Source of the DNA: Papaver somniferum
Lineage: Eukaryota; Streptophyta; Magnoliopsida; Ranunculales; Papaveraceae
Direction: 5' to 3'
Assembly: GCF_003573695.1 (NCBI RefSeq)
Contig: NC_039359.1
Span: forward strand, 116,319,849 to 116,383,848
DNA: 64,000 nucleotides
Under the pieces are notes generated by a model that was not told where the DNA came from, did no database searches, and worked only from the letters and a program-made list of their open reading frames with translations. Below are positions 23,182 through 53,653 of the stretch, piece by piece. The stretch's first letter is position 1; each line of letters begins with the position of its first letter. Position numbers and translations under genes: made by a program.

Positions 23182-23186
23182 ACCCT

Positions 23187-29628: not shown

Positions 29629-29637
29629 CTCTGTCCA

Positions 29638-32010: not shown

Positions 32011-32700
32011 CTAACAGCAGTGTCGGTATATTGTTTTCCCCTTCTGATCACAGCTTGCCTCGAAAGTTCGTTCCCTCTTGGTGTGAACGTGGGTTGAAGC
32101 TTCACCGGATAAAGAAGGACGCCTCATCAGCAAAGGTGCGTCGTGGTGCTTATCCCTTAGTGATGCAAGTCGTTCTTCTTCCTGAATTGAAGCCCACGTG
32201 GGTAGTGGGGTGCACAGGACTTTGTCTGATCTTCCCTGCGGAGTTTCCTTTGGCTCGAAAAGTTCCACTCCGCATATTGGTGCGTACGAAGACAATGATG
32301 CAGGAATACGGATGACTTCCTCATTTAGCATGGTCTTTAGGAACTGGTGATACGTTGAAGGGATGACCTTATTGTCATGAAGCCACAGTCTCCCTAGTAT
32401 CATATGATAGTCCGGATCCTTCTCTATGACTTCAAATTTCACTTTTGATTGAACAGGCCCTACTGATAAATTCAAATTGACATACCCTTACGTGTTGGTC
32501 TGGTTTTCTTCGAAGTCTGTCATTGTGGTGGTTGTCGTACGATCTTGCATGGGTGAACCTTGGCTGTCCTAAGAGTCTTGAGAGTAATCACATTCGAAGA
32601 TTCTCCTGTGTCGATGAGGGCCCTTCTGAACTCTGAACCCTTGATGTATGCGGTAACATGCAGGGCTCGGTTGTGACCTTCTTCTGCCATCATATCTTCT
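32011..32700 (-). pseudogene. E4 protease
   Basis: Retropepsin region. The active-site word reads DTGESS on the minus strand at about 32612-32595, in place of the more usual DTG/DGG-S-A. After a frameshift the C-terminal half (32475-32011) has FEVIEKDPDYHMILGRLWLH and IPSTYHQFLK, the conserved Tat protease end. The linker towards RT is not conserved. Confidence 0.8.
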
Positions 32701-32786
32701 TCTGTAAATGTAACATTATTTACAGATGTTTCCGATGCACTTAGGACCTCTGGACGTGAAGGAGCCAGGTGTACGTCCAGGGCTAT

Positions 32787-33173
32787 CTAGTTAATTGCAG
32801 CAAACATCTCCGCCCGCTGATTCTTCGAGAGGTGTAAAAGTTCACACAAGCTTTCCACTAGAGATGTCGCTTCCTGATCCACTGGTCTCTGGTTCGTAGT
32901 AAATCTGTTGATTTGAGAGGGACTAGTCTCCGGTGTGGAGGCCTCTGGAACGCTCATCTCTGATGTGATCTTGACGAGTAGGTCAAGTATGCCATTTATC
33001 GCTTCCTTGATCATCTCCATGTTCTTCATGTGAATCTCATGTACCCGCGCTAGTTCACTCAACGTTGGAAGTCTCCTGATTATACTGTCAGGTACGCCGT
33101 TGGGAGGAGGGATATCTCTGTTGGAGGAGTCACCAGGATTTGAGGCCGTTGAGGCGGTCCTAAGACCAACCAT
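32787..33173 (-). pseudogene. gag: E4 gag N-terminal remnant
   Basis: A minus-strand frame of 128 codons just after the primer-binding site. It begins MVGLRTAS, includes a helical segment (LSELARVHEIHMKNMEMI) and ends at a stop at 32787. The capsid core and zinc knuckle expected next are missing; protease starts less than 200 bases later. So most of gag has been deleted and E4 cannot supply a capsid. Confidence 0.65.
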
Positions 33174-33230
33174 TTGAAACTGATCGAATAGTATTGAAGA
33201 AATTGACTTTACAACCGAGAGATTAACCTC

Positions 33231-33247
33231 CCACTGTGGTCGCCAAT
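33231..33247 (-). other. E4 primer-binding site
   Basis: On the minus strand attggcgaccacagtgg abuts the LTR end. It is a Gypsy-type primer-binding site close to that of E1. Confidence 0.85.
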
Positions 33248-35582: not shown

Positions 35583-35587
35583 CCCAC

Positions 35588-35766
35588 CACCGCCTCTACC
35601 CTGCAGCAGGGAACGCGCAATCGAACTACTGAACCAGTGGGTTATGGAAAAGGAAATCCAGCTGCCCCCGACAGTGATAGACGTCAACAAAATGGACAAA
35701 AACGCGACCAAATACTGTCACTATCATCGGAGGTTGGGACATCCAACTGAAGAATGTTTCGCCTAA
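35588..35766 (+). pseudogene. gag: E1 gag, C-terminal part with zinc knuckle
   Basis: Continues the frame cut at 24662 by E4, ending at TAA 35764-35766. It holds a Gypsy nucleocapsid motif, KYCHYHRRLGHPTEECF (CX2-3...H...C type), as found in Tat gag proteins. The stop follows the knuckle immediately. After it (35767-35966) I find no protease or RT, only a short spacer. So pol has been lost and E1 encodes gag alone on its sense strand. Confidence 0.8.
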
Positions 35767-35966
35767 GGAGCATATTCAAACGAAAGCGCGCCTCTGGAGA
35801 GCTCTAGGCATCTAGGCAAGCGATTGAGCGTGACCCCTTTCCTCGTCACTAAAGCAAAGGAGGAAGAGTGGAGAGTATGAAAGATAAACTATAAATTGAA
35901 AACAATCTTCCCCTTTTTACAATAAGAATAAATTCTCTTTTTGGAATTCGTATTCAATGTGATAAA

Positions 35967-36576
35967 AAAGGTCACAGGAATGCCAAAGGCACCTGATCGA
36001 CTGACAAATCTACAAAAGGTCACAGGAATGCCAAAGGCGCCTGATTGACTGAGAAATCCACAAAAGGTCACGGGAATGCCAAAGGCGCCTGATTGACTGA
36101 AAAATCTACAAAAGGCTACGGGAATGCCAAGGGCGCCCGGTCGGTTGACAAATCTACAAAAGGTCACAGGAATGCCAAAGGCGCCTGACTGACTGACAAA
36201 TCTACAAAAGGCTACGGGTATTCCAAAGGCGCCCGGTCGGCTGACAAATCTACAAAAGGTCACAGGAATGCCAAAGGCGCCTGATCGACTGACAAATCTA
36301 AAAAAACCATGGGAATGCCAAAGGCGCCCAATTGGACGACAAATCTACAAAAGGCCATGAGAATGCCAAAGGCGCTCGGTCGGCTGACGAATATACAAAA
36401 GGTCACAGGAATTCCAAAGGCGCTTGATCAACTGACAAATCTACGAAAGGCCATGGGAATGCCAAAGGCGCCCAATTGGATGACAAATCTACAAAAGGCT
36501 ACGGGAATACTAAAGGCACCCGGTCGACTGACAAACCTACAAAAGGCCATGGGAATGCCAAAGATGCCCAATAAGA
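35967..36576 (+). repeat. E1 tandem array, 48-bp unit, about 13 copies
   Basis: Direct repeats with core aggaatgccaaaggcgcc and aaatctacaaaagg, period 48 bases. Because 48 is a multiple of three, both strands stay open over long stretches: minus 36263-35889 and plus 36309-36662 each translate as 16-residue repeats. I regard these as consequences of the period and not as genes, though a coding role is not excluded. Copies differ by several substitutions each, so the array is not recent. Confidence 0.88.
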
Positions 36577-36765
36577 TGATAAAAAGAAAGGGTGAAGTAG
36601 GCGCATTCCATCAACGCTCACCCATCCCACCGCTTCTGATAAAAAGAAAAGGGGGGGAGTAGGCGGGTTCTATCAAAGTTAACTCATCCCACCGCTTCCT
36701 CCTGATAAAAAGAAAGGGGGGAGTAGGCGCGTTTCATCAACGCCCAACATCCCGCTGCATACTAA
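36577..36765 (+). repeat. E1 second tandem array, about 60-bp unit, three copies
   Basis: Three units begin gataaaaagaaag and contain gtaggcg ... catc-aacg-c ... catcccaccgc. They follow directly on the 48-bp array. Noncoding; such arrays are common in the 3' region of Tat-type elements. Confidence 0.75.
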
Positions 36766-37042: not shown

Positions 37043-37807
37043 TTAAGCAGGCTGAAGCTTAGCCAATTCCTGTCGCTTCTCCTCAAGCTCTGCACGGACC
37101 GTTTCCTTCGCGGTCTCGGAACGTATCACTTCATCGTTAGATACCCCAACAACAACAAGCAACAGATTCAACACCTCTTTCTTACTAGAAGTCGCCTCAG
37201 AACGCTTCTCCAGCTCCCCCTCTAGCCTAGAAATCTGACTCGTAAGATGGCCACGAGGGTCATTCCGACTCTTCACCTTTGCCAACAACTCTTCCAACCA
37301 CTTTATTGGAAACTGAACGTTGATTGCGGACCGCACGACAGTCTCCCAGCCACGCATTGTCGCCGCGTCAACATGATCATCTCCTACACGCGTAAGTTGG
37401 TCAGCAATTTCCAATAGATTTTTAGTCATATAGTACAAAACGCGAACGTCCAGAAGACCCTCCTTCTCCATGTGACCACCACAACACTCCACAATATCTC
37501 TGTAGGAGGTGGAAAAAATGGTTGGAACCCAAAAGCCGTGAATGAGGGTGTCAGTGGCATGGTGTACTCCAGCCTCGGCAACACTCACTACCAAAGGGAA
37601 ACGAAGCTGCACGTCCTCAGAGTTTTCTGGCACAATGGGGATAGCTGGTATGTCAACAACATGAATATCAGTATGCTTCTCCACAGGAGCAGAGGAACCA
37701 CTACCATCCGTCCGAGCACGTTTAACAGGCCCATCTCCACTGGGGACTACGCGTCGCGTGCCATCCATGTCAGGCTTATTAGTATCCTTACACTTCTTAC
37801 CCATATC
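37043..37807 (-). pseudogene. E1 antisense PMD gene, exon 4 (coiled-coil C-terminus)
   Basis: Last exon, 765 bases, from the acceptor tgtctctag at 37808 to the stop at 37043. It opens in phase with exon 3. Early residues are charged, with a nuclear-signal-like GPVKRARTDG. Then come YRDIVECCGGHM, TKNLLEIADQL, and WETVVRSAINVQFPIKWL, each matched in the E4 antisense ORF. The end is a Glu/Lys/Arg-rich coiled coil (SRLEGELEKRSE ... RAELEEKRQELAKLQ). No stop or frameshift in this exon. Function unknown. Confidence 0.8.
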
Positions 37808-37889
37808 CTAGAGACAATGATGAAACTTTAGCAAACAAACGAACAAAAAAACAAGGAGAGAAGGGAGCAGAAAGTTCCAGGGGACTAAC

Positions 37890-37978
37890 CTCAAGGATCG
37901 ACGAATCGGGCAGGATATCAGCGGGCTTAGGACGAGATGCGGAAGGACTAGAAGATGACTCAGAGTCACTAGTAGAAC
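37890..37978 (-). pseudogene. E1 antisense PMD gene, exon 3
   Basis: An 89-base exon between acceptor catttttcag (ending 37979) and donor gttagt (37889). It encodes a Ser/Asp/Glu-rich linker (TSDSESSSSPSAS) and keeps frame with exons 2 and 4. The introns either side are 137 bases (37979-38115) and 82 bases (37808-37889), both GT-AG with pyrimidine-rich 3' ends. Confidence 0.7.
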
Positions 37979-38115
37979 CTGAAAAATGAGAGATGACCAC
38001 CATTGCGATAAACACCTTAGATTTGTTTTTTAAAAAAAAAATGAGGGGAGAGGGAAAGAGAGAGGAAAGAATAATGATAAAAACGAAGACACGTATTAAA
38101 TAGCTAGGAGGTTAC

Positions 38116-38385
38116 CCGCAGGATCATTAACGGTTGGTGCCACGTGGGATGAGGACCCACCAAAAACTGACCGGCTGGACCCAGACGGGCTCATTGATTG
38201 CAGAACGACACAAGGGGACACCGGAGGTTCTCCCATAGCACGGACAGTTTCAACCCGAAGAGGATGAACTGATGATACGTGAAGGAGCGGATATACCCAA
38301 CCAGAACCCCTGGGAAGACTAACCCCAAGATCCCTCAACTGGTCTACAAACGAGGAAGTTGGAATGTTACTCACGCTCTTAGGAG
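38116..38385 (-). pseudogene. E1 antisense PMD gene, exon 2, second part
   Basis: Continues exon 2 on the far side of E5. When E5 and one gttgc copy are skipped, the frame continues unbroken from 50488 to 38385. Encodes a Ser/Pro/Val-rich region (SFVDQLRDLGVSLPRGSG) up to the donor gtaacc at 38115. No recognised domain. Confidence 0.7.
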
Positions 38386-38390
38386 GTTGC

Positions 38391-39670
38391 TGATAGACGC
38401 ATTTATGTGTCTAATTTGTCCTCAATGTTTCGTATTGTTAGTACTCGTTTTCGTCCTTATTATGGTGTTTTGTGTGTTTTTAGGTATTTTTTGGAAATAA
38501 ATATTGTTGGAAAATTCGGCTCGAAAAATTATGTGGAGCACCCTCCTGAGGACATGTGATATGCGGACTCTCATTTTGGCTAAGGGGCACCTTAGTTGGC
38601 CAACTGCTATTCGCACCCCCGTCTCTGTTAGGGGGAGGTCATCATCTACATTTTGAATTTCAAATTTGGTGGGAAAATAATTCATACGCGGGAAGAATTA
38701 GGGTTGAATTTTTTAACGTGCTAGAAGGAGATTCAATGGCTGATATTCATTGGGAAGACTTGACTGAGCCTAACAGGCATCGTACGGGTCTTTGGTTCGA
38801 CTGAGTTTGGCTGGATTGTCGCGTGGATGGAAACAGAGTGCCACGGGTTATAGTTAGTCCATTCCGAGTTATAAGTATGTGATCGAGAGGTTTTCATGTG
38901 CCTGATCCGCGTTATACAACTTCTGGATGATGACTCGACGTGTTGGGAGTCTTATGTCACGAGAAAACAGCGTGTGGAGTTAAATCTGGGAAGAAAATAT
39001 TCCCGAGAATATTTTTCTTCAATGCCGAGTAATGGAAGATTATATGCAGTTATGATGGGAGATTTGGGGGCAGTGAAGCTATATAAGTCGTTGAGGGTCA
39101 GTAGAGTGGGCAGACGGAGAGTTTGGTAGATTACAGAGCATCACAGAGTCGAAAATCAAGTTGCAGGAAAATTCTTTTCTGCTGATGCATAGCTGAAGAA
39201 CACGAAGAACAGACTTACCAGGACAATCGTTTTCCAACAGTGACAACGACTCACAGCCGAGGGTCGTACATCAGAGGCAGACTTATTTGCTACAGCGTTT
39301 GCGACACAGAGTCGTGGGTCTTAGAGCAACAGTAATAGTGACACATCCTCTGTATCGTTTTTTTTTGGTTTGTAACAAATATAATTGTTACAAACCCGGT
39401 TTTGAATTATTTCTCCATTTCATCATTTGTAAACACCCTTTGAGCAATAATTATGATTTTTGAGCGTGTTTCCAACAACATGATGAGAGGCTAAATTCTC
39501 GTGTAACCAAGGCAATGGATGAATCTATTCACAAATGAATAATGGGTAACTATTTCATTTTCTCTAATATTTAATTATAATTCACTCAATCACTGCTTTT
39601 GCAGAGTTTTTTAATTGTTTACATAATTTTCTTCATTAGTTGTGATTCAATTAGATAGGTTATGCTTTGT
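38391..39670 (+). repeat. E5 left LTR, plus orientation, truncated U5
   Basis: Matches the reverse complement of 50487 leftwards through U3 and R (to about 39358, gtatcgttttt). It then continues with sequence typical of Athila U5 (gatgagaggctaaattctcg near 39482, tgcagagttttttaattg near 39600). It stops at 39670, where it abuts reversed gag sequence with shared bases tttaatgcacg. ORFs at 38279-38500, 38556-38804 and 38896-39129 are LTR noise. Confidence 0.8.
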
Positions 39671-39927
39671 TTAATGCACGAAGCTCGGTTGGTCCTAGTT
39701 GGGAACATGTAATCTTTCAAAGTTGCCATCGCTGGCACAGCTGAAGTACTAGGGGTACCTTCCTCACGAAGAGACAGATTTTCAAAACTGAAGTTTCCAA
39801 AAACGGGGCTCTCAAAAGAAGAGTCTTCGAGCTCCCCGCCTTCACAAGAAGAACTACTAGGTTTATCACTAATCAAACGACCTAGAGTGTTTCTTTTCCA
39901 AGCCCGCTCTCTGATAACCTCGGGCAT
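39671..39927 (-). pseudogene. gag: E5 duplicated gag N-terminus
   Basis: The first 80-odd codons of Athila gag (MPEVIRERAWKRNTLG to PTRTNRASCIK), nearly identical to the start of the full gag at 48596. Cut at the junction with the inverted LTR. No independent function. Confidence 0.85.
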
Positions 39928-41755
39928 ACACTGGAAAAACAAAAGAAAAAGAAAAGTCCTAAAAGGAAGGGAAGTTCTATGCAAACACAAACAAGGCTGA
40001 CTTCACCACAACAAACCTAATGATTTCTAGCAAACAAAAAGCATGATAGCTCCACTTAGATTGTTTCTAGACCAGCTTTTAATCATTCGAAAGGGAATTC
40101 GTTACAATTTAAGCAAACCCCTCTGGAATCAATCCGAGTCAAAGTAAGTTGAATAGAGGCGAGGGAAGCTGCGTGGAGATTTGATACCCAAGGCCTCACC
40201 GCATTACAAGGCGGCGCAGTCATGCATTCAACTCACATAAACCATCATGAACTTCGAAGTATGCTTAAAATAGTAACCAATATTTTTCGAACGACTTTCT
40301 TACTAAGCTCGTTACCCTATAGGTCTCGTTCTATTCCAAATTTTAAAGCTTAGGTTCGCGTTAAGTATCGTTTTCCTAAGGCGGGCAAGAAGAGAACGGT
40401 GATGAAATCCGAACCCTTATCTTGTATGGCCAGTCCTTGCCCTTTACTAGGAAATTAAAGCAGCCGTTTTCAGTTCCTCGACATATATTCACACGAAGGA
40501 AGACAGTAACTCGCTGACAGGGGATTCGCGAGTGTTTCGACGAACTTACCTCCCGTTCCAGACGGGGGATGAACCGCTGAAGTCGACTCGGGCCACAACT
40601 CCAATGTCATGTACGAACCCGAGGGGCCAAGGTGATATCGTAATCACCGTCCTTCTCTGCAAACAGTTTAATATTTAATACTACCCTTCCGTAGGGTTTA
40701 AAAATAAAAGAATGTCCAAATGTCGAAGTCCAAAAGAAAAGGAAAGTCAAAAAAAAACATAAAAAAAAAAAATTAAAAAAAAAAAACAGTAAAAAAATAA
40801 ATAAAATAAAACAAACAAAAAAAATAAAAAATAAAACGATACAGAGGATGTGTCACTGTTACTATGCTCTAAGACCCACGACTTTGTGTCGCAGGACGCT
40901 TAGCAAATAGTGCCTCTGATGTACGACCTCGGCTGAGTCGTTATCACTGTGGAAAAGACTGTCTGGTAGTCTGTTCTTCAGCTATGTAGCAGCAGAAAGA
41001 ATTTTCCTGGCAACTTGATTTTTTCGACTCTGTGATGCTCTGTAATCTCCCAAACTCTCCGTGTGCCCCACTCTACTGACCCTCACGACTTATATAGCTT
41101 CACTGCCCCCAATCTCCCATCATAACTGCATATAATCTTCCATTACTCGGCATTGAAGAAAAATATTCTCGGGAATATTTCTTCCCAGATTTAACTCCTC
41201 ACCCTGTTTTCTCGTGACATAAGACTCCTAAACGTCGATTCATCATCCAGAAGTTGTATAACGCGGATCAGGCACATGAAAACCTCTCGATCACATACTT
41301 ATAACTCGGAAGGACCAACTATAACCGTGGCACTCTGTTTCCTTCCACGCGAGAATCCAGCCAAACTCAGTCGAACCAAAGACCCGTATGATGCATGTTA
41401 GGCTCAGTCAAGTCTTCCCAATGAATAACAGCCATTGAATCTCCTTCTAGCACGCTAAAAAATCCAACCCTAATTCTGCCTGCGTCTGAATTATTTTCCC
41501 GCCAAATTTGAAATTCAAAATGTAGATGATGACCCCCCTAACAGAGACGGGGGTGCGAATAGCAGTTGGCCAACTGAGGTGCCCCTTAGCCAAAATGAGA
41601 GTCCGCATATCACATGTCCTCCGGGGGGTGCATTTTTTTCGAGCCGAATTTTCCAACAATATTTATTTCCAAAAAATACCTAAACACCATAATAAGAGAC
41701 AAGAGTACTACAATACGAAACATTGAGGAAAATAGACACATAAATGCGTCTATCA
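39928..41755 (-). repeat. E5 internal U3-R plus leader copy
   Basis: Direct repeat of 48597-50487. On the minus strand it starts tgatagacgc at 41755 and runs through U3 and R, an A/T-rich run (about 40735-40835 on this strand), then the untranslated leader up to gag. It precedes the polypurine tract of the pol-bearing unit and so serves as its 3' LTR, but it reads on into leader and gag instead of ending at a target duplication. Confidence 0.8.
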
Positions 41756-43117
41756 AATACCCCCAAACTTATTATTTGCTAGTCCTCGAGCAAAACTAAT
41801 AAAAAAATAAAAGAGTTAATCTCGGGAGGGTTTACCAGAGGTGTACCCACAAAACCATTACTTCTAATTGGTCACAAGTATCCAAAGAGCTATGAGGACA
41901 TAATATTCTCAACCTATCTCCAAGTAACTAGAATGCCAGAGAAATTAAAGGTGTCAGCTCTAAAGCTGACTGAAGAAAAGGGGAGACACATCCGCAACAC
42001 TGCTAGATAAAGAGATATCCGCTACACAGCTAGATAAACATTGTAAGATGCGTCCGCTGCTTTACAGCTGGATAAGATTAGGAGAGAGATAAAGATGAGA
42101 GGGACATCTGCTACACAGCTGGACTAATTACGTGTGATGAGTTAAACCAGTGCTAGAAAGATCTTGTGCCAGATTGAAAGCGGACTAACAAAGCAACCAA
42201 ATGTATCTTTCTTCGACTCTCTCATAGTGCTCAGTAGAAACAACGTCTTCTTCGGTCTTCAACTGTTGATGATAAACTATCGAACCTCATAGAACCTTGA
42301 CAATTAACTCTTCTCTTCGATTTCTTGCTTGACTTATAAATTTCTACTTCCCTTGGCCTTATTCTAGAACAAAAGAACGTATGATTTTTATTTTTTTTTT
42401 TTTTTCATTTTTTTTTTTTTTTTGGAAAAAATTACAAGACAAAATTTACATGGCCATGAGAGAAGGACTTTCAAAACTTGGATCTTCGCAACTTGTGATG
42501 TCTTGGTATCATGGATTCTAACAACTTATATCATTTGCTCTTATAACTTCAACTTTGATTTTTGAATTATTCTTTTCTATTGTTGCTTCTAAACCTAAAA
42601 CGTCTTCAACTTTCTTCATAGATTTTGATGTCGCTCCGCTTGTTGATGATGATAAGTTTCTACTGAGAGAGAGTCGCAATCCAGTAACTAAGACTACATT
42701 GTGAGGTTGCTTTGTCTTTCTGGCATTTCCTGACCTACTTGCCTTTCCATCATGTATGGTTAGGTCCATCACGGTTACCCTCTAAAAGGAACAAGTTCTC
42801 TCCTGAATTTCAAGGATCTCAATGTCTTTTTCTCTAATGTCTCAAAAGGTTGTTATCCCTAGCATTCCAATTTCTATCTTTTCGGTGAGAAACAGTATGT
42901 AAACTTAGCTAACCGGATACCATGTGACGCTAGAAGTTTCAAAAGTGCAACTAAAAAGTTCTTCCCCACCCCAAACTTAAATCTAACATTGTCCTCAATG
43001 TTTCTAATGAAAGAGCAATACCAAAAGTAAAATAACACGAGGAGAAGTTGGAAAGATAGTACCTGGGTGAAGAAAATCAAAAACTAATATACAACATACA
43101 ACTTCCTCGATGGTCAA
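41756..43117 (-). other. E5 3' noncoding region and polypurine tract
   Basis: Between integrase and U3. The polypurine tract is the minus-strand copy of 41756-41772 (aatacccccaaacttat). A second purine tract with a neighbouring CATTG/CAATG pair lies near 42965-43003, as also in E6 at 60250-60290. A T-rich run is at 42390-42424. No env-like gene is visible; the small frames 42518-42772 and 42874-43080 have no recognised motif. Confidence 0.6.
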
Positions 43118-44425
43118 TCAAGGGTAAACAGGGTCCTCCAGAGGGACCTCCTCAACATCACCTGTAGGAAAGGGCTCTAAAAAGGGTTTCAATCTCTGAC
43201 CGTTAACCTTCGAAGAACTACTACCATCCGGTGTCTCAATTTCAACAGCTCCATGAGGAAAGACAGTGCGAACAATAAAAGGACCCGTCCACCGAGAACG
43301 TAACTTCCCAGGGAAAAGATGCAACGGGTATCATACAGAAGAACTTTTTGACCTGGAGAAAATGACTTCCGTAAAATATTTCTATCATGCACAAGTTTCA
43401 TTTTGTTCTTATACTCCTTCGCACTATCGTAAGCATCTATACGAATCTCGTCCAACTCATTGAGCTGGAGTTTCCTATGGGCTCCTGCCTTGTCAAGTGA
43501 AAAATTTAGCTGCTTAACAGCCCAATAAGCTCTATGTTCTAACTCAACAGGTAAATGACATGCCTTCCATACACAAGCCGATAAGGCGACATTCCAATGG
43601 GGGTCTTAAACGCAGTACGGTAAGCCCATAAGGCATCAGTAAGCCTAGACGACCAGTCTTTCCGATTAGGATTAACTGTTTTCTCTAATATACGTTTTAT
43701 CTCCCTATTGGAAACCTCAACCTGACCACTAGTCTGCGGATGATACGGGGTAGCTACCTTATGTGTAATACCATATTTCTTCATCAAAGCCTAAAAGGTC
43801 CATTACAAAAGTGCGACCCTCCATCACTAATTATAGCTCGCGGTGTACCAAAACGTGTAAGTATATTATTTTTCAAAACTCAATCACAACCCTATGGTCA
43901 TTGGTTTTACACGCAACCGCCTCAATCCACTTAGAGACATAGTCTACGGCGACAAGGATGTATAGGTTACCAAAAGAATTAGGAAACGGACCCATAAAGT
44001 CAATACCCCACACATCAAAGACCTCAACAATAGATGGTTCAAGGGCATCATGTTCCTACGGGAAATGGTTCCTAATTTCTGGCAACGTTCACAAGTAACA
44101 CAGTAACTTGGGAGTCTTTAAACAAAGGCCAATAGAATCCACACTGCAATATCTTAGCAGCAGTCTTCTTAGCACTAAAGTGACCCCCACAAGCATGATC
44201 ATGACAAAAGGAAATAATACTGGACTGGTCACTCTCAGGTATACATCTCCTAATAATCTGGTCTGGACAATACTTAAAATAAGGATCATCCCAAAAGAAG
44301 TGCTTAACCTCGGCTAAAAACCTAGAACGATCTTGTTTACCCCAATGTTGGGGCATTCGACCAGTAACAAGATAATTCACTATATTCGCATACCAAGGTG
44401 CTTGGGTAACAAAGAAGTTGTTCAT
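43118..44425 (-). pseudogene. E5 integrase
   Basis: Athila-type integrase scattered over frames. The HHCC domain shows CHDHACGGHFSAKKTAAKIL and GFYWPLFKDS near 44240-44110. The core Asp residues lie in minus-strand words encoding WGIDFMGPF (about 44010) and IISDGG (about 43830). The Glu is in [13 protein letters not shown] (about 43720). Then [19 protein letters not shown], and C-terminal pieces ([20 protein letters not shown] at 43310-43250). At least three frameshifts are needed to read through, so the gene is dead. Confidence 0.88.
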
Positions 44426-44494
44426 CAGGAAACTATCCCTTATAGGAAGGGATCATCAGGGAATCAACAACTAGCCTAGACAAGTGGTCTGCTA

Positions 44495-45721
44495 CTACAT
44501 TTTCGGCACCCTTTTTGTCTCTAATGTCTGGAGAAACTCTTGCAACAAAAGTATCCACCTAATCAATCTAGGTTTCGTATCCTTCTTAGACAAAAGATAT
44601 TTCAAAGCAGCATGATCAGTATATATGACGATCTTAGAACCTAAGAGATAGGGTCTAAACTTGTCTAAGGCAAACACAATGGCTAACAGTTCCTTCTCGG
44701 TAGTGGTATAGTTCAACTGGGCATCATTCAGAGTTTTGCTAGCATAGTAAATCACATGAAGTAATTTGTTTTCTCGCTGACCTAGCACAACACCAATAGC
44801 ATAATCTGAAGCATCACACATGATCTCAAAGGGTAAGTTCCAGTTGGGTGCCTGGACTATGGGGGCGGTAGTGAGTAAAGTCTTAAGCTTCTCAAAAGCC
44901 TCTAAACAAGCATCATCAAAGACAAACTTAACATCTTTTGCAAGCAAGTTGCAAAGAGGTCTAGAAATCAAGCTAAAATCCTTAATGAATCGACGATAAA
45001 AACCTGCATGCCCTAAGAATGACCTAATATCTCTTACGGTTTTTGGGACCTGTAAAGTCTTGATAAGGTCAACTTTGGCTTTATCTACCTCTATACCCTT
45101 AGAAGATACGATATGCCCTAAACAATTCCTGATCGAACCATGAAATGACATTTCTCCCAATTAAGCACTAGATTCTTTTCCTTACACCTAGTCAACACTA
45201 ATGACAAATGATGCAAGCACTCATCGAAAGACGAACCAAACACTGAAAAATCATCCATAAAGACCTCTAAAAACTTTTCTACCATATCGGAAAATATGCT
45301 CATCATGCAACGCTGAAAAGTCGCAGGGGCGTTACATAGCCCGAAAGGCATGCGTCTATACGCAAAGGTACCAAAGGGACAGGTAAAAGTAGTTTTTCTT
45401 GGTCTTCTGGGGCAATAACGATCTGATTGTAGCCTGAGTAGCCATCTAGAAAACAGTAATGACTATGTCCAGCTAATCTCTCTAGCATTTGGTCGATAAA
45501 GGGAAGGGGAAAGTGGTCCTTCCTAGTGACCTTGTTCAATTTCCTATAGTCAATACAAACACGCCAACCCGTGGTCACTCGGGTCGGGATTAACTCATTG
45601 TTATCATTCTGGACTACAGTAATACCGGATTTCTTGGGAACAACCTGAACGGGGCTGACCCACTTACTGTCTGAAATGGGGTAGATAATGCCTGCATCTA
45701 ACAGCTTAAGAACCTCGGTTC
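44495..45721 (-). pseudogene. E5 reverse transcriptase and RNase H
   Basis: Begins after two stop codons that separate it from protease. Motifs on the minus strand: WRVCIDYRKLNKVTRKDHFP, motif A CFLDGYSGYNQI, a frameshift, then MPFGLCNAPATFQRCM and active-site FMDD (EVFMDDFSVFGSS), the usual Athila variant. After another shift come [16 protein letters not shown] (connection) and RNase H ([51 protein letters not shown]). All key acidic residues remain although the frame is broken. Confidence 0.9.
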
Positions 45722-45728
45722 AAACTAC

Positions 45729-47258
45729 TTATTTCATATTAGGGTTTAGTCTTCGTTGCATCTCCTTAGATGGTTTGGTATCTTCCTCTAAATAGATCTG
45801 ATGCATACAAACAGTAGGACTTATACCCTTAATGTCAGCTATGGTCCACCCTAAAGCTTCCTTGTTGTTTTGAAGGACGGTCACTAGCCTACTTTCCTGA
45901 TCATTATCCAAGTCGGAAGCAACAATCACAGGTAAAGTCTCAGAAGGGCCTAAAAACACATACTTCAGGGTATCTGGCAATGGTTTTAGGTCCAACTTAG
46001 GAGGCTCTTCTAACGAAGGAACTAGGGTAGACTTAGAAACTGGTAGTGGTTCGAACTTAGGTTTCCATCCGTTACTAGTGTCTAACAAAGGGGTTGAATC
46101 TAACAAAGCATTCACCTCATTAATCACATTATCATCATCGAAATCAATCCCAAAGTGAGCTAGGCATTTCTCTAACGGATCTTCTAACAAAGTGTTTGGT
46201 AATGACTCCTCGACTAATGTTCCTATCATGTTTACCTCTTCTATGATCGAGTCATCTAGTTCAGAGGGTAGCTTACTAATATGAAAGACGTTCAGCTCAA
46301 TAATCATATTACCAAAAGACAAATTCATAATACCAGTTCGACAATTAATGATCACATTGGATGTTGCTAAAAATGGGCGACCTAAAATCACTGGTATCTG
46401 GTTTTCTGGGTCAGGGACAGGTTGGGTATCTAGGATAACAAAATCCACTGGATAAATAAACTTGTCGACCTCAATAATAACATCCTCGATCACACCACGA
46501 GGAATTTTAACGGACCTATCAGCTAACTGAAGTGTCATCTGGGTAGGTTTCATATCACCAAGTCCTAGCTTGAGGTACACATGGTATGGAAGAAAATTCA
46601 CACTAGATCCTAAGTCAAGCAAAGCTTTCTCAACACAGTATTTACTTATTGTGCAAGAAATGGTAGGGGACCCTGGGTCTTTATACTTAGGAGTAGTGGT
46701 ATTCTGAATAATGAAACTCACGTGACTAGCTAGGAAGGCTTTCTTTTGGACACTAAGCTTACGCTTTCGTGTACACAAGTCCTTAAGAAACTTGGCATAA
46801 GCGGGAATCTGCTTAATCTCATTCAACAATGGTAGGTTGATAGTTACCTCCTTAAAAACCTCCAATATATCATTAAAGTTGGACTCCCTCTTAGTTGGAA
46901 CTAGAAGCTGGGGGAACGGGTCTCTGAGAACAAATCCGGGCTCAACAGGACCCTCATTGGTCTCTTTAGAGACTCTATCAGTCTCCTCATTTTCTGGCTC
47001 AGAAGGGTGAACTACAACATGTTCACTATCTGGCATGGCAACCTTATTGTCAACTTTCTTTCCACTCCTGAGGGTTGTAATAGAGTTCACATGATTGTAC
47101 GATTTCTCTGCTTTAGGATTGGGTTGAGTTTGACTAGGAAACTTACCTTTTTCCCTCAAAGATTCATTTATCTGACTAAGCTGGTTTTTTAACTCAGAAA
47201 TAGTTTGGGAGTTAGCATAACCTATATTTTTACTTTCTTCTATCCCTTGAGAAACCAT
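45729..47258 (-). pseudogene. E5 gag end and protease
   Basis: A 509-codon minus-strand frame. It starts in the gag tail (SYNHVNSITTLRSGKKVDNK) and continues into retropepsin: KALLDLGSSVNFLPYHVYLK, with the active-site Asp, then PVILGRPFLATSNVIINC. A long acidic linker follows to TKPSKEMQRRLNPNMK, where RT should begin, but a TAA stands at 45729. Length and motifs are those of Athila gag-pol. The frame itself is open, but its upstream join to gag has a stop at 47289. Confidence 0.88.
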
Positions 47259-47288
47259 TAGGTTGATCTTATCAGAGTTTTTAATAAA

Positions 47289-48596
47289 CTAGGCTAGAGT
47301 GTCTTCTAAACTTGTGATCTTTTTATCCGAAGGGTTCTGAAACTGGGGTTGACCTGAAGAGTTCTTAGCATAACCAAAACCTGGGGGAGGCTGAGAATTA
47401 CTAGGCTGACCTTGATTCTGGCCCTTATACCAAGAAAAATTAGGATGGTTTCTCCAACCAGGGTTGTAGGTTTCTGAGTATGGGTCAAACTTCTGACGGT
47501 TCTCAAACCTAGCGTTGTTATAGACAGCATGGGCTTGTTCTTCACTAACATGACCTTCCCAAAACGAGTTATTGGGCTCTACTACACAACTAGAGACTTG
47601 AGCGGCTCTGATCCTATCATCAGGTTCAACAAGAGACCTATATTTAGGCTGATTCAATTCCAAAGCTTCTAACCTTCTAGACAAAGCAGCAAACTTAGCA
47701 TCTGAATCGAAGCTTGTATCTACCATATTGGTTCTACTTTTATTGACCAAGAGTCTTTTAGGGGGTTCAACACAAGACTCCCACTGTTGGGATTTTTCAT
47801 AAATAGCTCCTAAGAAGGTAAAAGCATCATCAACATTTTTACTGGTGAACTCACCAGCGCACATAGACTCGACCATGGCTTTGGTCGAATAGTCTAAACC
47901 ATTATAAATAATCTCAACAAGTTTCATCTTATCAAATCCATGGTGAGGACACTGGGATATGAGATCATTGAATCTCTCTAAAAACCTATAAAGAGACTCT
48001 CCCTCTTGTTGCACACTAGCACTAATTTTCTGCCTAACAACTGCAGTTTTATGCTTAGGGTAGAATTTCATATAGAAAGCAGCAACAAGTTTCTGCCATG
48101 TTTCAATGGACTCAGGTGGTAGGTTGTTCAGCCAGGTCTTGGATTTATCTCTCAAGGAAAAGGGAAACATCTTAAGTTTCAAAACTTCATCAGTGAGGTC
48201 TTTTATTCTAACTGTCCCACAGATTTCCTCAAAGTCCCTAATATGAAAATAAGGGTTCTCATCATCTTTTCCTAAGAATATAGGGATCATTTGAAGAATA
48301 CTAGGTTTTATCTCGAAATTAGCCGTATTGGCTGGCAATTTAATGCACGAAGCTCGATTGGTCCTAGTTGGGAACATGTAATCTTTCAAAGTTGCCATCG
48401 CTGACACAGCTGAAGTACTAGGGGTACCTTCCTCACGAAGAGACAGAATTTCAAAACTGAAGTTTCCAAAAACGGGGCTCTCAAAAGAAGAGTCTTCGAG
48501 CTCCCCTCCTTCACAAGAAGAACTACTAGGTTTATCACTAATCAAACGACCTAGAGTGTTTCTTTTCCAAGCCCGCTCTCTGATAACCTCGGGCAT
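47289..48596 (-). CDS. gag: E5 gag, Athila type
   Basis: A 435-codon open frame from ATG 48596. It carries the Retrotrans_gag domain: YFHIRDFEEICGTVRIKD, KMFPFSLRDKSKTWLNNLP, SIETWQKLVAAFYMKFYP, QQEGESLYRFLERFNDL, then the C-terminal CPHHG motif and a Gly/Asn/Pro-rich end (NPGWRNHPNFSWYKGQNQGQ). No zinc knuckle is present, as usual in Athila gag. A TAG at 47289 cuts it from the protease frame, so it is intact over the capsid but probably truncated. Confidence 0.88.
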   Translation of the reverse strand: MPEVIRERAWKRNTLGRLISDKPSSSSCEGGELEDSSFESPVFGNFSFEILSLREEGTPSTSAVSAMATLKDYMFPTRTNRASCIKLPANTANFEIKPSILQMIPIFLGKDDENPYFHIRDFEEICGTVRIKDLTDEVLKLKMFPFSLRDKSKTWLNNLPPESIETWQKLVAAFYMKFYPKHKTAVVRQKISASVQQEGESLYRFLERFNDLISQCPHHGFDKMKLVEIIYNGLDYSTKAMVESMCAGEFTSKNVDDAFTFLGAIYEKSQQWESCVEPPKRLLVNKSRTNMVDTSFDSDAKFAALSRRLEALELNQPKYRSLVEPDDRIRAAQVSSCVVEPNNSFWEGHVSEEQAHAVYNNARFENRQKFDPYSETYNPGWRNHPNFSWYKGQNQGQPSNSQPPPGFGYAKNSSGQPQFQNPSDKKITSLEDTLA

Positions 48597-50487
48597 ACAC
48601 TAGAAAAACAAAAGAAAAAGAAAAGTCCTAAAAGGAAGGGAAGTTCTATGCAAATACAAACAAGGCTGACTTCACCACAACAAACCTACTGATTTCTAGC
48701 AAACAAAAAGCATGATGGCTCCACTTAGATTGTTTCTAAACCAGCTTCTAATCCTTCGAAAGGGAATTCGTTACAATTTAAGCAAACCCCTATGGAATCA
48801 ATCCGAGTCAAAGTAAGTTGAATAGAGGCGAGGGAAGCTGCGTGGAGCTTTGATACCCAAGGCCTCACCGCATTACAAGGCGGCGCAGTCACGCATTCAA
48901 CTCACAGAAACCATCATGAACTTCGAAGTATGCTTAAAAGAGTAACCAATATTTTTCGAACGACTTTCTTACTAAGCTCGTTACCCTATAGGTCTCGTTC
49001 TATTCCAAATTTTAAAGCTTAGGTTCGCGTTAAGTATCGTTTTCCTAAGGCGGGCAAGAAGAGAACTGTGATGAAATCCGAACCCTTATCTTGTATGGCC
49101 AGTCCTTTCCCTTTACTAGGAAATTAAAGCAGCCGTTTTCAGTTCCTCGACATATATTCACACGAAGGAAGACAGTAACTCGCTGATAGGGGATTCGCGA
49201 GTGTTTCGACAAACTTACCTCCCGTTCCAGACGGGGGATGAACCGCTGAAGTCGATTCAGGCCACAACTCCAATGTCATGTACGAACCCGAGGGGCCGAG
49301 GTGATATCGTAATCACCGTCCTTCTCTGCAAACAATTTAATATTTAATACTACCCTTCCGTAGGGTTTAAAAATAAAAGAATGTCCAAATGTCCAAGTCC
49401 AAAGTCCAAAAGAAAAGGAAAATCTAAAAAAAAAAAACATAAAAAGCATAAATAAAATAAAAAAACAATAAAAAATACTAAATAAAATAAAAACAAACAA
49501 AATAAAATAAAAAATAAAACGATACAGAGGATGTGTCACTGTTACTGTTGCTCTAAGACCCACGACTCTGTGTCGCAGACGCTGTAGCAAATAAGTCTGC
49601 CTCTGATGTACGACCCTCGGTTCTGAGTCGTTGTCACTGTTGGAAAACGACTGTCCTGGTAAGTCTGTTCTTCGTGTTCTTCAGCTATGCAGCAGCAGAA
49701 AAGAATTTTCCTGCAACTTGATTTTTCGACTCTGTGATGCTCTGTAATCTCCCAAACTCTCCGTCTGCCCACTCTACTGACCCTCAACGACTTATATAGC
49801 TTCATTGCCCCCAAATCTCCCATCATAACTGCATATAATCTTCCATTACTCGGCATTGAAGAAAAATATTCTCGGGAATATTTTCTTCCCAGATTTAACT
49901 CCACACGCTGTTTTCTCGTGACATAAGACTCCCAACACATCGAGTCATCATCCAGAAGTTGTATAACGCGGATCAGGCACATGAAAACCTCTCGATCACA
50001 TACTTATAACTCGGAATGGACTAACTATAACCCGTGGCACTATGTTTCCTTCCACGCGACAATCCAGCCAAACTCAGTCGAACCAAAGACCCGTACGATG
50101 CATGTTAGGCTCAGTCAAGTCTTCCCAATTAATATCATCCATTGAATCTCCTTCTAGCACGCTAAAAAATCCAACCCTAATTCTGCCTGCGTCTGAATTA
50201 TTTTCCCGCCAAATTTGAAATTCAAAATGTAGATGATGACCTCCCCCTAACAGAGATGGGGGTGTGAATAGCAGTTGGCCAACTGAGGTGTCCCTTAGCC
50301 AAAATGAGAGCCCGCATATCACACGTCCTCCGGGGGTGCTCCGCATAATTTTTCGAGCTGAATTTTTCCAACAATATTTATTTCCAAAAAATACCTAAAA
50401 ATACACAAAACACCATAATAAGGACGAAAACAAGTACTAACAATACGAAACATTGAGGAAAAATTAGACATATAAATGCGTCCATCA
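48597..50487 (-). repeat. E5 right-end U3-R and leader
   Basis: On the minus strand starts tgatggacgc at the right terminus and contains U3, R, an A/T-rich tract (about 49425-49520 on this strand) and the gag leader. The leader has a possible splice donor (gggaggtaagtt, about 49210-49222). Where a U5 end and a tggcgcc-type primer-binding site are expected I find none. ORFs 49276-49590, 49542-49982 and 50074-50346 are noise. Confidence 0.8.
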
Positions 50488-50716
50488 GTTGCGACGCGCT
50501 TCTATGAAGACCATGCTGAGGTTGTAAGGATGAGATATTAGCAGAAGAACAAGGGCGCGGCACAGACAACTTAGCTTCCTCTCGCCTAGCCTTCTTTGCA
50601 AGGCCCCTCTCAGTCCAATCACTTTCAGGCATGTTCAAAAACTCTTCCATTACATAAGAAGGGGGCTTCCACCCCACGCGATTGGAATGGGGAGCTTCCT
50701 GAGAAAGCAATCCCCG
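50488..50716 (-). pseudogene. E1 antisense PMD gene, exon 2, first part
   Basis: From the acceptor aaatgtgtag (ending 50717) to the E5 insertion. Encodes SNRVGWKPPSYVMEEFLN, MPESDWTERGLAKKARREE and a Ser-rich stretch. Open throughout. The intron before it (50717-50790, 74 bases) has GT-AG ends and a T-rich 3' part. Confidence 0.75.
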
Positions 50717-50790
50717 CTACACATTTTATCGAAAAGAAAAGGGGTGACAATAAATGATTGACGAATGTAAAACGAAGGAAACAAAAAATA

Positions 50791-53017
50791 CCTGTGTTTC
50801 CAGAGGATTAGCAGACGGTCTTGTCACCTCTACCGTGGGGGCTTATGATCGAAAAATGACTTCGACCTTTCTTTGGCTTTATGGTCTCATGACCCTCAGG
50901 AGGAGCCCAATAAGTCACTAAGGGCTCCAAAGGGCGACCGTTGGTGGCTGGAATGAGACGATGTGAAGTATCTACGGCATCATCAAGCTTAATCCGACCA
51001 GACACATGAAGCACTCGAAGGTCTTGAACATACGGGTTGCAGGGAGGAGACGATTCACGCAAAAGAAAATTCAAGGCCCGACGACGTATGAAATCATGGT
51101 ACTCGTGGGCTCCCTCAGTAACTGCCAACGGGCGCTCAGGGACAGGCTGCATGAACGAAAATTTAACCCCTCAGTTAGACAGATGCATCGGCCCCTTGAA
51201 GATAAAACGATCAAAGCTAGCGACAATATCCCCAATATCAGAACTTCCCCAATGAGGAAACCTACAAGGAATCCCTTGGTCAAACCCAACTTGCCGAGCT
51301 ACGCGGTCGGGATTGTAAGACATGTTGATGAACTTGCCAGCATGGAAACCAGGGAGAAAGCCAGGCAACACGGCCATTACCGAATCAAAGTCTGCCACCG
51401 CCAAAAGCTTTGTCGAGTCTAGTTCCGTGTCGAAAGGCGCAGTAAAGTCATAATGCGCTGGACCCGACCGGCCTTCTTGATAAGGAAATGGTACAAAGTC
51501 TTTAGCCACGTACAGATGCTTGGCAATATCGCCCTCGGGGATTTTCCCCTTGAGATGCCAACTGGAACCCTTAACCAAGCCATCATCCTGCCTGATATCT
51601 ACTTCACGGTGAATCGCTAGTGCATTAGGATCAGGCGCGTATGGGGAAACATGCTCCCAAGACCATGCTTGCATAAAAGAGGCTAGGATGTAAGTCTCGA
51701 TCTTATGCGCTGAACCTACTGTCTGAAGGTCGTGACAGAACAAATTTAGATGACGATATAAACCGCCTAATAACATCGGCGCAAGCGGGAAAGAAACGAT
51801 GCGAGATAACAACACCGCCATTGGCACAAGTTCACTCTTGATGGTATCTTGGGGACTGTACTCAAATACATCATGCAGAGCCAAAACAGGATGAAAGCGG
51901 CCAACTCCGTGCGAGGGTTTTCCTCTTTTCATTTGGGGGGAAGAAATTTCCCATCTACTAACCGCAGAGCCCAATACTTGATCCAAAGAGGGAAAGAAGC
52001 GCGGCGGTTGGTCTTGGTAACCCATTTAGGATCGACCCCTGCTGAAGGAGCTGACGCACCATGGATCACCTCATGAGCACGGAAAGAACTAGCAAGCAGT
52101 CGTTCACTCGCTGGACGCGCCGAAAGAGTCTTCTTCTCCTTAACCCATTTATCCTTCCCCTTTGCGGAGGACGACGACGCCTCTTTCTTGCTCACGCCGA
52201 CAATCTTCTTGTCCTCTCCATGTTTTGATGACACCTGATCCTTCCGCACCAACTCACGACGGGAAGCGTCTTCAAAGTTCAACAAATAAGTGCACAACAC
52301 TTTATCCTCATCGTTCAACGCTCCGAAGAAAATCTCCTCGTCATAAGAATGACAGCCATGGATAGGCAACCCTATAAGGGCGACTACATCCTCCAGAACA
52401 ATGGTTGCTTCCCCCCACGTCGTGAGAAGGGTATGAACAGGAGGAGCCCCGCGAAAAAAGAGCCGTGTTAGGTCGCGCATACTCCTTTTCACTTTTCGTT
52501 TGAGAGATAAATTTATAGCTTCATCAATACCCGCTTCACGAAGGATGGCCGCGTGGCCAGGGCTGGAATGTATATAAGATACCCAGTGTGGCCATATCGG
52601 ATGAGTCTTTGACTTGGAGAGAATATCGATGACAGGAAGATCGTAGTCACCACGGTGGATAGTCATCTGCGACACTGTTTTAAATGCAAAAGCATCCATA
52701 GTCTCCGATTCAGGTTGCATAAGCCACCCGGGGGCAGAAGGGTAAGGTAATACCGGGGGGTTTAGAAAGCGAGGGACTAAGACATCATCAAGAGGAAAAA
52801 CGCGCCTACCTCCGCGGAACTCTCTCAGCTTTAGCGCGCGTTTTAGGGTGGACCCGCTAGTAAAATCCGCTATCGTATATGACTTGCCATCCGCCAGAGG
52901 AGGTAGGAGAATTTCATCCTGTCCCGAGTACTCGGTCTCCTCGGAACCCCTGCTCATGGCTCCTTCAGACTCGTCAGATTCTCCAAATGAACTACTATTG
53001 GTGGAACTACTAGACAT
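50791..53017 (-). pseudogene. E1 antisense PMD gene, exon 1 (plant mobile domain)
   Basis: Begins at ATG 53017 with a Ser/Glu-rich N-terminus (SSSFGESDESEGAMS). A plant-mobile-domain core (PF10536-like) follows: LLTTWGEATIVLEDVVALI with GLPIHGC, a Lys/Ser-rich insert, FPLWIKYWALRLVDG, then ELVPMAVLLSRIVSFPLAP with LGGLYRHLNLF, and FMQAWSWEHVSPYAP. PMD proteins (MAIN/MAIL1 group) act in the nucleus in transcription and silencing of repeats, and the domain is also found in transposons. This copy has a frameshift at a six-base G/C run (51937-51942), an in-frame TGA at 51171-51173 and a frameshift near 50840, so it is a pseudogene now. The donor is gtattt at 50790. Confidence 0.82.
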
Positions 53018-53089: not shown

Positions 53090-53099
53090 CTATATATAG
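53090..53099 (-). promoter_or_regulatory. TATA box of the E1 antisense gene
   Basis: ctatatatag lies about 73-82 bases upstream of the ATG at 53017 on the minus strand. A pyrimidine-rich leader separates the two. This is a textbook plant core-promoter layout and suggests the antisense gene had its own promoter independent of the LTR. Confidence 0.6.
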
Positions 53100-53294
53100 G
53101 GAGCCACAAATCCTGAACGTGCGGTTATGCAGAGGGAATAATAACCGGTAGAAACTGAAGAGAAGATGGAAAATTTGCACGATAAAAGAAGGTTAAGCGT
53201 CGCTCGTGGTTGTGGAATCAATAAAGAGGAAGGTGACCGAAAATAACTTGACTACTGGGTCATTTAACAATTGACCCAATGGTCAGGGGACTAA
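53100..53294 (+). other. E1 3' end: antisense promoter region and sense polypurine tract
   Basis: Between the antisense TATA box and the 3' LTR. The last bases (ggtcaggggactaa, 53281-53294) are the probable plus-strand polypurine tract. The pair caattgacccaatgg nearby is partly palindromic. Upstream elements of the antisense promoter would have to lie here or in the LTR. Confidence 0.55.
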
Positions 53295-53653
53295 TGTTGA
53301 TACCTGAAAAATAATATCTCTTAACGGGTATATGGTGCCTTAATAGGAGGGGATAAGCCTTGGACTTGGGGACTAAGCCCAAGTCCAATGAGAAAAATAC
53401 CCACAAGATAGGAGGGACAAAGCGGGATTAATAGATAAGAAAAATGATATATGAAGGAATGGCATTAGAAGTAATTAAAGAGATTTAGGACATGTGTCAT
53501 GATGTCATAAAAGGAGGGACTTTTGGGAAAGTCTATATAAGGAAGGACAAGGTACAATGGGAAGGAAACTCTCTCTATTACCATTCCTAGTAAAGTGAGG
53601 TCACTTGGTGAGACTAGGACGTGTAGAACCAAAACTAAAATCACCTTTCAACA
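53295..53653 (+). repeat. E1 3' LTR
   Basis: Complete 359-bp LTR, tgttgatacc to tttcaaca, followed by aaagg (53654-53658). TATA-like gtctatataagga is at about 53532. It is the reference copy used to recognise the split 5' LTR. Confidence 0.93.

What the first reader, a model, noticed from the sequence alone, without database searches (positions are those of the whole stretch)
37043..53017. A multi-exon plant-mobile-domain gene on the antisense strand of a gag-only retrotransposon
Seen: on the strand opposite to E1 gag, an ATG at 53017 preceded by a TATA box, a PMD-like core (TTWGEATIVLEDVVALI; ELVPMAVLLSRIVSFPLAP), three in-phase GT-AG introns (50717-50790, 37979-38115, 37808-37889) and a coiled-coil C-terminus with stop at 37043. 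It lies between the TSD-bounded LTRs of E1, so it is cargo and not a neighbour. Known: PMD proteins act in repeat silencing and the domain occurs in some Gypsy and Mutator-like elements. Inference: a retrotransposon that keeps only gag for itself and carries a nuclear protein with a link to silencing, perhaps as a counter-silencing factor. I do not know of a described element with this exact plan.
Basis: partly seen in the sequence, partly recalled or inferred. Interest (0 to 1): 0.9.

Follow-up and report, generated by a model that had tools for sequence, protein, structure and literature searches.

The report
Gag-only retrotransposon with antisense PMD gene
In a poppy genome a family of jumping genes without copying enzymes of its own carried two genes that natural selection had kept, one for its particle shell and, on the opposite strand, one for a protein of a type that plants use to silence jumping genes; the copy in this window is a decayed example.

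Summary
E1 (11348-53653, 5-bp duplication AAAGG) is an LTR retrotransposon with gag, a 48-bp tandem array and an antisense plant-mobile-domain gene (PF10536), split by three later insertions. The gene is not "in phase" here: two in-frame stops, three single-base losses, a 30-base loss, and a 12-kb insertion in its middle; intron 1 ends at 50699, not 50717. The genome is probably opium poppy (matching contig lengths). The refutation test was run: 20 of 39 other places with the gene were fetched (so selected for it). None matches pol, and the gene co-varies with gag and LTR. PMD exon 1 shows purifying selection (dN/dS 0.27; other frames 1.07 and 1.14), like gag (0.27). No fetched copy has an unbroken exon 1, so the selection is past. 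Three elements with the same LTR type encode pol; no PMD was found in them (two seen in part). A divergent locus, L032, has gag-PR plus antisense PMD and no RT match. PMD in Gypsy elements, antisense ORFs, gag-only elements and the counter-silencing idea are all in print; my searches found no report of the combination, and two surveys read in part used RT as marker. Function remains inference.

The parts
11343..11347 (.). E1 target-site duplication, left (AAAGG)
   Evidence: right copy 53654-53658
11348..11393 (+). E1 5' LTR, first part (TGTTGA start)
   Evidence: 11348-11392 is 91% to 53295-53339
23184..23500 (+). E1 5' LTR, second part, after nested element C (11394-23182)
   Evidence: 92.7% to 53338-53653; K2P 0.073
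23503..23521 (+). primer-binding site region TGGCGACCACA...
   Evidence: sequence; similarity to tRNA-Arg is recalled, not tested
23543..24662 (+). E1 gag, first part (PF03732; one in-frame stop at 23867-23869)
   Evidence: 22 homologues, 20 named Papaver somniferum
35583..35853 (+). E1 gag C-terminal part with zinc knuckle, after nested element A; decayed here
   Evidence: sequence; 7 of 12 aligned homologues end like it (the match of the end is my own reading)
35966..36743 (+). tandem arrays: 48-bp unit (12.5 copies) and 62-bp unit (2.7 copies)
   Evidence: array also in other copies and in pol-bearing L030
37043..37807 (-). antisense gene exon 4 (C-terminal tail domain and coiled coil), stop at 37043
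   Evidence: dN/dS 0.37, but the frame control is weak
37890..37978 (-). antisense gene exon 3; introns 37808-37889 and 37979-38115 flank it
38116..38385 (-). antisense gene exon 2, downstream part (after B)
   Evidence: frame continues across B's target site
50488..50698 (-). antisense gene exon 2, upstream part; intron 1 is 50699-50791
50792..53017 (-). antisense gene exon 1 with plant mobile domain; in this copy two stops and several small deletions
   Evidence: dN/dS 0.27
53091..53098 (-). TATATATA box of the antisense gene
   Evidence: TATATA at this place in 18 of 19 sequences with letters there
53285..53294 (+). polypurine tract (AGGGGACTAA) next to the 3' LTR
   Evidence: sequence
53295..53653 (+). 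E1 3' LTR (359 bp)
   Evidence: 40 matches in the genome, 40 of 2305 candidates scored
53654..53658 (.). E1 target-site duplication, right (AAAGG)
24663..35582 (-). nested element A (not E1): Tat-type pol (PR, RT, RH, aRH, INT), no gag found, TSD CCCAC; antisense tail ORF 27284-28093 (+), one stop
   Evidence: E1 gag has no tblastn match in A; ORF 32787-33263 was not scanned
38391..50487 (-). nested element B (not E1), gag-pol, LTR copies in inverted orientation at its ends, TSD GTTGC

Best explanation
E1 belongs to a multi-copy, non-autonomous Ty3/Gypsy family, most likely Tat clade. It has lost, or never had, pol; it supplied its own Gag and borrowed reverse transcriptase and integrase from pol-bearing relatives with the same LTR type, such as L030. 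Between its tandem array and its 3' LTR it carries a spliced antisense gene with its own TATA box. The product is a PMD protein with a C-terminal tail domain, and selection kept it as part of the gag-only element while the family spread. Shown: anatomy, repeated co-occurrence, no pol match in 20 copies, a similar short gag-to-array junction in 14 copies, purifying selection on exon 1 and gag. Inferred: mobilisation in trans by L030-like elements (about 0.7). Inferred with low confidence: the protein works in the nucleus in trans on the element's own family, most likely by countering or blunting host silencing (about 0.35), otherwise as an accessory factor of transcription or integration. The window copy is dead, and none of the 20 others has an unbroken exon 1.
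For: 20 further copies, of 39 other places, chosen by a PMD match: antisense gag in 15, 3' LTR in 18, the full order LTR-gag-array-PMD-LTR in 6 (L010, L014, L015, L017, L022, L027), plus L029. No pol match in the 20 (tblastn E <= 1e-5 with the pol of element A, which does find L030's pol). In the 14 copies where both gagC and array are found the gap is 104-131 bp, which suggests that pol was gone before the copies diverged. dN/dS 0.27 in PMD exon 1 over 210 pairs of 21 sequences against 1.07 and 1.14 in the other frames; gag 0.27 (111 pairs) against 1.05 and 1.00; the exon 1 ratio falls from 0.42 in close pairs to 0.20 in distant pairs. In 10 disjoint pairs 10 are below 1 (0.20-0.56), pooled p 3e-105; other frames 7 of 10 below 1 (0.70-1.41), pooled p 0.36 and 0.23. 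Gag and PMD distances correlate, r 0.60, 0 of 2000 permutations. Pol-bearing relatives with the same LTR type: L030, L034, L035. 22 gag homologues, 20 named Papaver somniferum. L032 has gag-PR plus antisense PMD and tail with no RT match; another gag-PR/PMD pair lies in the same arrangement about 2.8 kb apart (C5:56701479 and C5:56705603).
Against: The window gene is broken; the longest open stretch within the roughly 750-codon exon 1 in the 20 other copies is 576 codons, so no working gene was seen. No transcript data. Two protein searches found no annotated poppy PMD protein of this type (one distant Hirschfeldia hit, only the top 8000 candidates scored; none). Selection on exon 4 is not clear: the +1 frame is below 1 in 8 of 8 disjoint pairs, the true frame in 7 of 8. 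Nothing here tests silencing. Copies were picked by a PMD match, so the share of E1-LTR elements without PMD is not known; L030, L034 and L035 show that such elements exist. In five of the 20 copies gag lies outside the fetched stretch, is absent or is inverted, so there the absence of pol says little.
Confidence: 0.72

Rival explanations
1. The PMD protein is a nuclear accessory factor of the transposition cycle (pre-integration complex import, integration targeting, or transcription from the LTR), as proposed for antisense ORFs of Grande and Retand, with no role in silencing.
For: Antisense ORF proteins of Grande and Retand are described as nuclear or predicted to bind DNA, with retroviral accessory proteins as the model (PMC7264820 parts 1-2 of 3; PMC11963269 parts 1-3 of 5). 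L030 carries a different antisense ORF in the same position, so the slot may serve a general accessory role.
Against: The functional links that I read for PMD proteins are to gene expression and TE silencing (PMC7156037 and PMC5418596, passages).
Confidence: 0.35
2. Only the antisense RNA matters (double-stranded RNA or promoter interference); the protein is irrelevant.
For: Antisense transcription has been suggested as a regulator in itself (PMC7264820).
Against: Codon-specific purifying selection on exon 1 in one frame; splice sites mostly kept.
Confidence: 0.07
3. The selection signal dates from an autonomous ancestor with pol plus PMD; gag-only copies are recurrent, dead deletion products.
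For: PMD is common in pol-bearing Gypsy elements elsewhere (57% of Ogre elements, PMC6317226 section 13). No copy examined has an unbroken exon 1.
Against: The 14 copies with both parts have the same short gag-array junction (gap 104-131 bp) although copies differ by up to 25% in PMD exon 1; no pol match in 20; no PMD match in the three pol-bearing relatives seen (L034 and L035 seen in part).
Confidence: 0.12
4. The PMD gene was dropped into E1 once as a separate insertion and is not part of the family.
For: Nested insertions are frequent here: A, B and C all lie inside E1.
Against: 39 other places carry it; in the 20 fetched it stands in the same position, next to an E1-type LTR in 18; congruent divergence with gag and LTR.
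Confidence: 0.02

Closest known systems
Gypsy-encoded PMD proteins (PMD-A1/A2 clades; Ogre extra ORFs)
   Same: PMD encoded inside Ty3/Gypsy elements of angiosperms (PMC5418596 passages; PMC6317226 section 13; PMC9289625 section 12).
   Different: E1 has no pol; PMC9289625 found elements by their RT. The orientation in published elements was not visible to me (figures and supplements not held).
Retand elements with antisense ORFs (TRP28) and tandem arrays
   Same: LTRs of 315-1194 bp, frequent tandem arrays and antisense ORFs between the sense genes and the 3' LTR (PMC11963269).
   Different: E1 has PMD, no Transposase_28 match in the ORFs scanned, and no pol.
TR-GAG (terminal-repeat retrotransposons with gag only)
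   Same: LTRs plus gag only, needing pol in trans (name seen in the listing; definition recalled).
   Different: E1 has a second, antisense gene that was under selection; six full-length copies measure 5.9-8.8 kb.
VANC of VANDAL transposons (TE-encoded anti-silencing protein)
   Same: What it may work like: a TE accessory protein whose targets often form tandem repeats (PMC5735166 abstract).
   Different: No sequence relation was tested; no activity shown for E1.
MAIN/MAIL1 (host PMD-C proteins)
   Same: Same domain family; act in TE silencing in Arabidopsis (PMC5418596, PMC7156037, passages).
   Different: Host genes; E1's protein is encoded in an LTR element and has a tail domain shared with other poppy elements; no direct comparison with MAIN/MAIL1 was made.

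Membership tests
PMD protein family (PF10536) | Pfam gathering score reached | tested here: met
   51.3 bits against 34.9 for ORF 51171-52025; 80.5 bits for the composite with X at the breaks
LTR retrotransposon | paired LTRs, PBS, PPT, 5-bp TSD | tested here: met
   of seven further elements measured, TSD perfect in L027 and L030, imperfect or not found in the other five
TR-GAG / gag-only | gag present, no pol | tested here: met
   Retrotrans_gag in E1; no pol match in 20 of 20 copies
TR-GAG / gag-only | short element with gag as the only gene (recalled) | tested here: not met
   antisense gene with dN/dS 0.27 in exon 1; length 5.9-8.8 kb in six copies
Tat clade (Ogre/Retand) | aRH between RH and INT | tested here: inconclusive
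   E1 has no pol; the same-LTR relative L030 has RT, RH, aRH, INT in this order, so E1 is placed by LTR kinship only
Retand lineage | antisense Transposase_28 (PF04195) ORF | tested here: not met
   no PF04195 match at E <= 1 in the antisense ORFs scanned
Ogre lineage | PMD extra ORF (57% of elements) and tRNA-Arg PBS | tested here: inconclusive
   PMD met; the PBS assignment rests on memory; RT phylogeny not done
PMD-A clade | phylogenetic placement with Gypsy-encoded PMDs | not tested
   reference sequences not held
VANC-type anti-silencing system | protein causes loss of silencing at its own element | not testable with these tools
   needs an experiment

The most novel reading that the evidence does not exclude
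E1 and its L030-like relatives formed a split retrotransposon: one element brought Gag plus a trans-acting PMD factor that relieves silencing, the other brought Pol. The shared LTR and 48-bp tandem repeats are the common address on which the PMD protein acts, so a non-autonomous element earned its mobilisation instead of only parasitising its partner. The same plan may recur in a divergent gag-PR plus antisense-PMD type (L032).
Probability: 0.2. Interest if true: 0.85.

Novelty: new variant of a known kind. Interest (0 to 1): 0.62.

Why it matters
PMD genes sit both in transposons and in the host's silencing machinery, and why transposons keep them is open. Here the PMD gene was kept by selection, in its first exon as strongly as gag, in a family in which no enzyme of transposition was found. 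That argues that the protein gave the element a benefit other than enzymology, and offers an RT-free setting to test it. Surveys that find elements by their RT would overlook such families.

Tried and rejected
Led nowhere: PMD protein searches (1 distant hit with only the top 8000 candidates scored, 0 of 4845 candidates); viral-contig scans (no pattern match; 14 pattern matches, none confirmed). Homology of A's antisense ORF to the E1 tail was weak on its own (8 of 2000 plain and 27 of 2000 local shuffles reach it) and became convincing only through L032 (0 of 1000 on both sides). L030's antisense ORFs showed no relation to the E1 tail (34 and 318 of 500 shuffles reach the score). A disjoint-pair dN/dS run failed for gag and was repeated for gag alone with pairs over 30% divergence dropped (pN/pS below 1 in 6 of 6 disjoint pairs; other frames 5 of 6 and 4 of 6). 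In one search block ex2b was read in the wrong phase, so its stop counts are void; indels there are counted against the broken window sequence. Not done: structure prediction, PMD phylogeny, RT phylogeny, genome-wide classification of E1-LTR elements.
Full report
What was checked. The window lies in a 2.7-Gb genome (G000:C2:116319849-116383848). Twenty of 22 proteins matching E1 gag are named Papaver somniferum, and seven of their contig lengths equal those of G000 contigs, so I take the host to be opium poppy (inference).

Anatomy of E1. Self-comparison and junction reading give an LTR element from 11348 to 53653 with duplication AAAGG on both sides. Its 5' LTR is split by element C (11394-23182); its gag by element A (about 24663-35582, TSD CCCAC); its antisense gene by element B (38391-50487, TSD GTTGC). 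LTR divergences (K2P) are 0.073 for E1, 0.052 for A, 0.051-0.053 for C and 0.032-0.037 for B, which fits the nesting order. E1 itself reads LTR, PBS, gag, 48-bp tandem array, antisense gene, PPT, LTR.

The antisense gene. PF10536 is matched over its cut-off. The corrected model: exon 1 53017-50792, intron 1 50791-50699, exon 2 50698-50488 plus 38385-38116 (B between), intron 2 38115-37979, exon 3 37978-37890, intron 3 37889-37808, exon 4 37807-37043. From exon 2 to the stop the frame is open across B's target site and introns 2 and 3. Exon 1 is broken in this copy: two in-frame stops, three single-base losses and a 30-base loss. Neutral decay since insertion would be expected to give about 4 new stops (with transitions weighted twice transversions), so the gene may well have been intact on arrival (inference). 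The gag of this copy is also decayed.

The refutation test. A DNA search with 53017-50000 (minus) gave 43 matches at 40 places, the window included, with only 40 of 9912 candidates scored, so a lower bound. 28 of the 43 matches end at query 2525-2530, the insertion site of B. Twenty of the 39 other places were fetched with 9.4 kb each; I took those with a near full-length match, so they are selected for PMD. In gag-sense orientation: E1-type LTR just beyond the gene's start in 18 of 20 (not in L023, L026); gag upstream on the other strand in 15 of 20 (L018 only a piece; L019 only an inverted nested copy; none in L012, L021, L025, L028); the complete order in 6 (L010, L014, L015, L017, L022, L027). 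L029, an LTR pair, is a further complete one. No pol match in the 20. In the 14 copies with both, gag end and array start are 104-131 bp apart, which points to one shared, pol-less junction (inference). No copy has an unbroken exon 1: the longest open stretch within its roughly 750 codons is 576 codons. So the family members seen are all decayed, and the selection below is past.

Selection. Copies were projected on the window's codon register, codons with gaps or stops skipped. PMD exon 1 blocks: pooled dN/dS 0.27 over 210 pairs of 21 sequences, other frames 1.07 and 1.14; exon 4 0.37 (0.77, 1.11); exon 2a 0.42 (1.47, 0.75); gag 0.27 (1.05, 1.00). Pairs are not independent, so disjoint pairs were used: exon 1, 10 of 10 below 1 (0.20-0.56), other frames 7 of 10 each (0.70-1.41), pooled binomial p 3e-105 against 0.36 and 0.23; exon 4, 7 of 8, but the +1 frame is 8 of 8 below 1, so exon 4 is weak evidence; gag, 6 of 6, other frames 5 and 4 of 6, pooled p 4e-18 against 0.31 and 0.27. 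The exon 1 ratio falls with divergence, quartile medians 0.42, 0.28, 0.24, 0.20, as expected for selection on active lineages followed by decay after insertion. Pairwise distances of gag and PMD exon 1 correlate (r 0.60, 16 sequences, 0 of 2000 permutations reach it), PMD and LTR r 0.60 (0 of 2000), gag and LTR r 0.43 (48 of 2000).

Own promoter. TATATATA lies 74-81 bases before the ATG, outside the LTR; TATATA stands there in 18 of 19 sequences with letters at the place. Transcription itself was not tested.

Pol-bearing relatives. L030 (LTRs 84% to E1) has gag, PR, RT, RH, aRH, INT, the same 48-bp array, no PMD match, and two related antisense ORFs of another kind. L034 and L035, found as RT places next to E1-type LTRs, have gag and pol and no PMD match in the 10 kb seen; their 3' LTRs were not reached. 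RT-RH-aRH-INT is the Ogre/Retand order (PMC6317226 section 13). So E1 is best seen as a gag-only derivative or sibling of such elements (inference).

A second, divergent locus. Of three other PMD places fetched from the list (L031, L032, L033), L032 has a 643-codon open frame with the PMD, a separate tail ORF on the same strand, and gag-PR on the opposite strand, with no match to the two RT queries used; its LTRs were not identified. L031 and L033 matched none of the queries, the two E1 PMD queries included, and are other PMD types. L032's tail matches both A's antisense ORF and E1 exon 4 (0 of 1000 shuffles each). A gag-PR search (96 of 47655 candidates scored) and the PMD list (109 of 22762 scored) share one further place by eye, C5:56.70 Mb, with the same antisense arrangement. 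So antisense PMD plus tail looks like an older module of poppy Gypsy elements, of which A keeps only the tail (inference).

What is known. PMD in Gypsy elements is well described, with clades PMD-A1 and -A2 exclusively Gypsy-encoded (PMC5418596 passages); it is the most frequent non-canonical domain in one survey of plant LTR-retrotransposon consensuses (PMC9289625 section 12) and is found in 57% of Ogre elements (PMC6317226 section 13). Antisense ORFs with tandem arrays are typical of Retand (PMC11963269 parts 1-3 of 5; PMC7264820 parts 1-2 of 3). Counter-silencing by TE-encoded PMDs is a printed suggestion (PMC8616336 passages). VANC shows that a TE-encoded protein can do this, with targets that often form tandem repeats (PMC5735166 abstract). 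PMC9289625 and PMC11963269 used RT as the entry marker, so an RT-less family would not be seen there. Searches for the combination (listings only, cut to 12 of 914) showed no such report; the 2011 survey of extra ORFs (Steinbauerova et al.) is not held, and I recall only its abstract, so a prior description there cannot be excluded.

Verdict. The structure is real, repeated and was under selection; the copies seen are decayed; the function is open. A new variant of a known kind.

Noticed in passing
38391-50487: Element B ends in two LTR copies in inverted orientation (38391-39366 and 49511-50487, 96%), and holds an internal direct copy of LTR plus gag start (39670-41755 against 48339-50487), flanked by one TSD: possibly an autointegration product.
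   Followed up: partly
24663-35582: Element A has pol and an antisense tail-domain ORF, but no gag was found: a pol-only counterpart inside a gag-only element.
   Followed up: partly
L032 3815-9995: A divergent locus with gag-PR on one strand, PMD and tail ORFs on the other and no RT match; the frame with the PMD is open over 643 codons.
   Followed up: partly
L030 7346-8353 and 8623-9342: Pol-bearing relative of E1 with two related antisense ORFs of unknown type (no Pfam match at E <= 1) in the slot where E1 has PMD.
   Followed up: partly
L028 8913-9401 (in gag-sense orientation): An E1-type LTR directly followed by a second E1 5' region: two elements may share one LTR.
   Followed up: no
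L019 1341-5146 (in gag-sense orientation): An inverted E1-type copy lies inside the antisense gene of another E1 copy.
   Followed up: no
1-14408: Several segments are repeated directly and inverted at about 72-95% identity on the left side of the window; not analysed.
   Followed up: no
whole genome: PMD matches are many in this genome: 149 matches with only 109 of 22762 candidates scored, apparently of several types.
   Followed up: no
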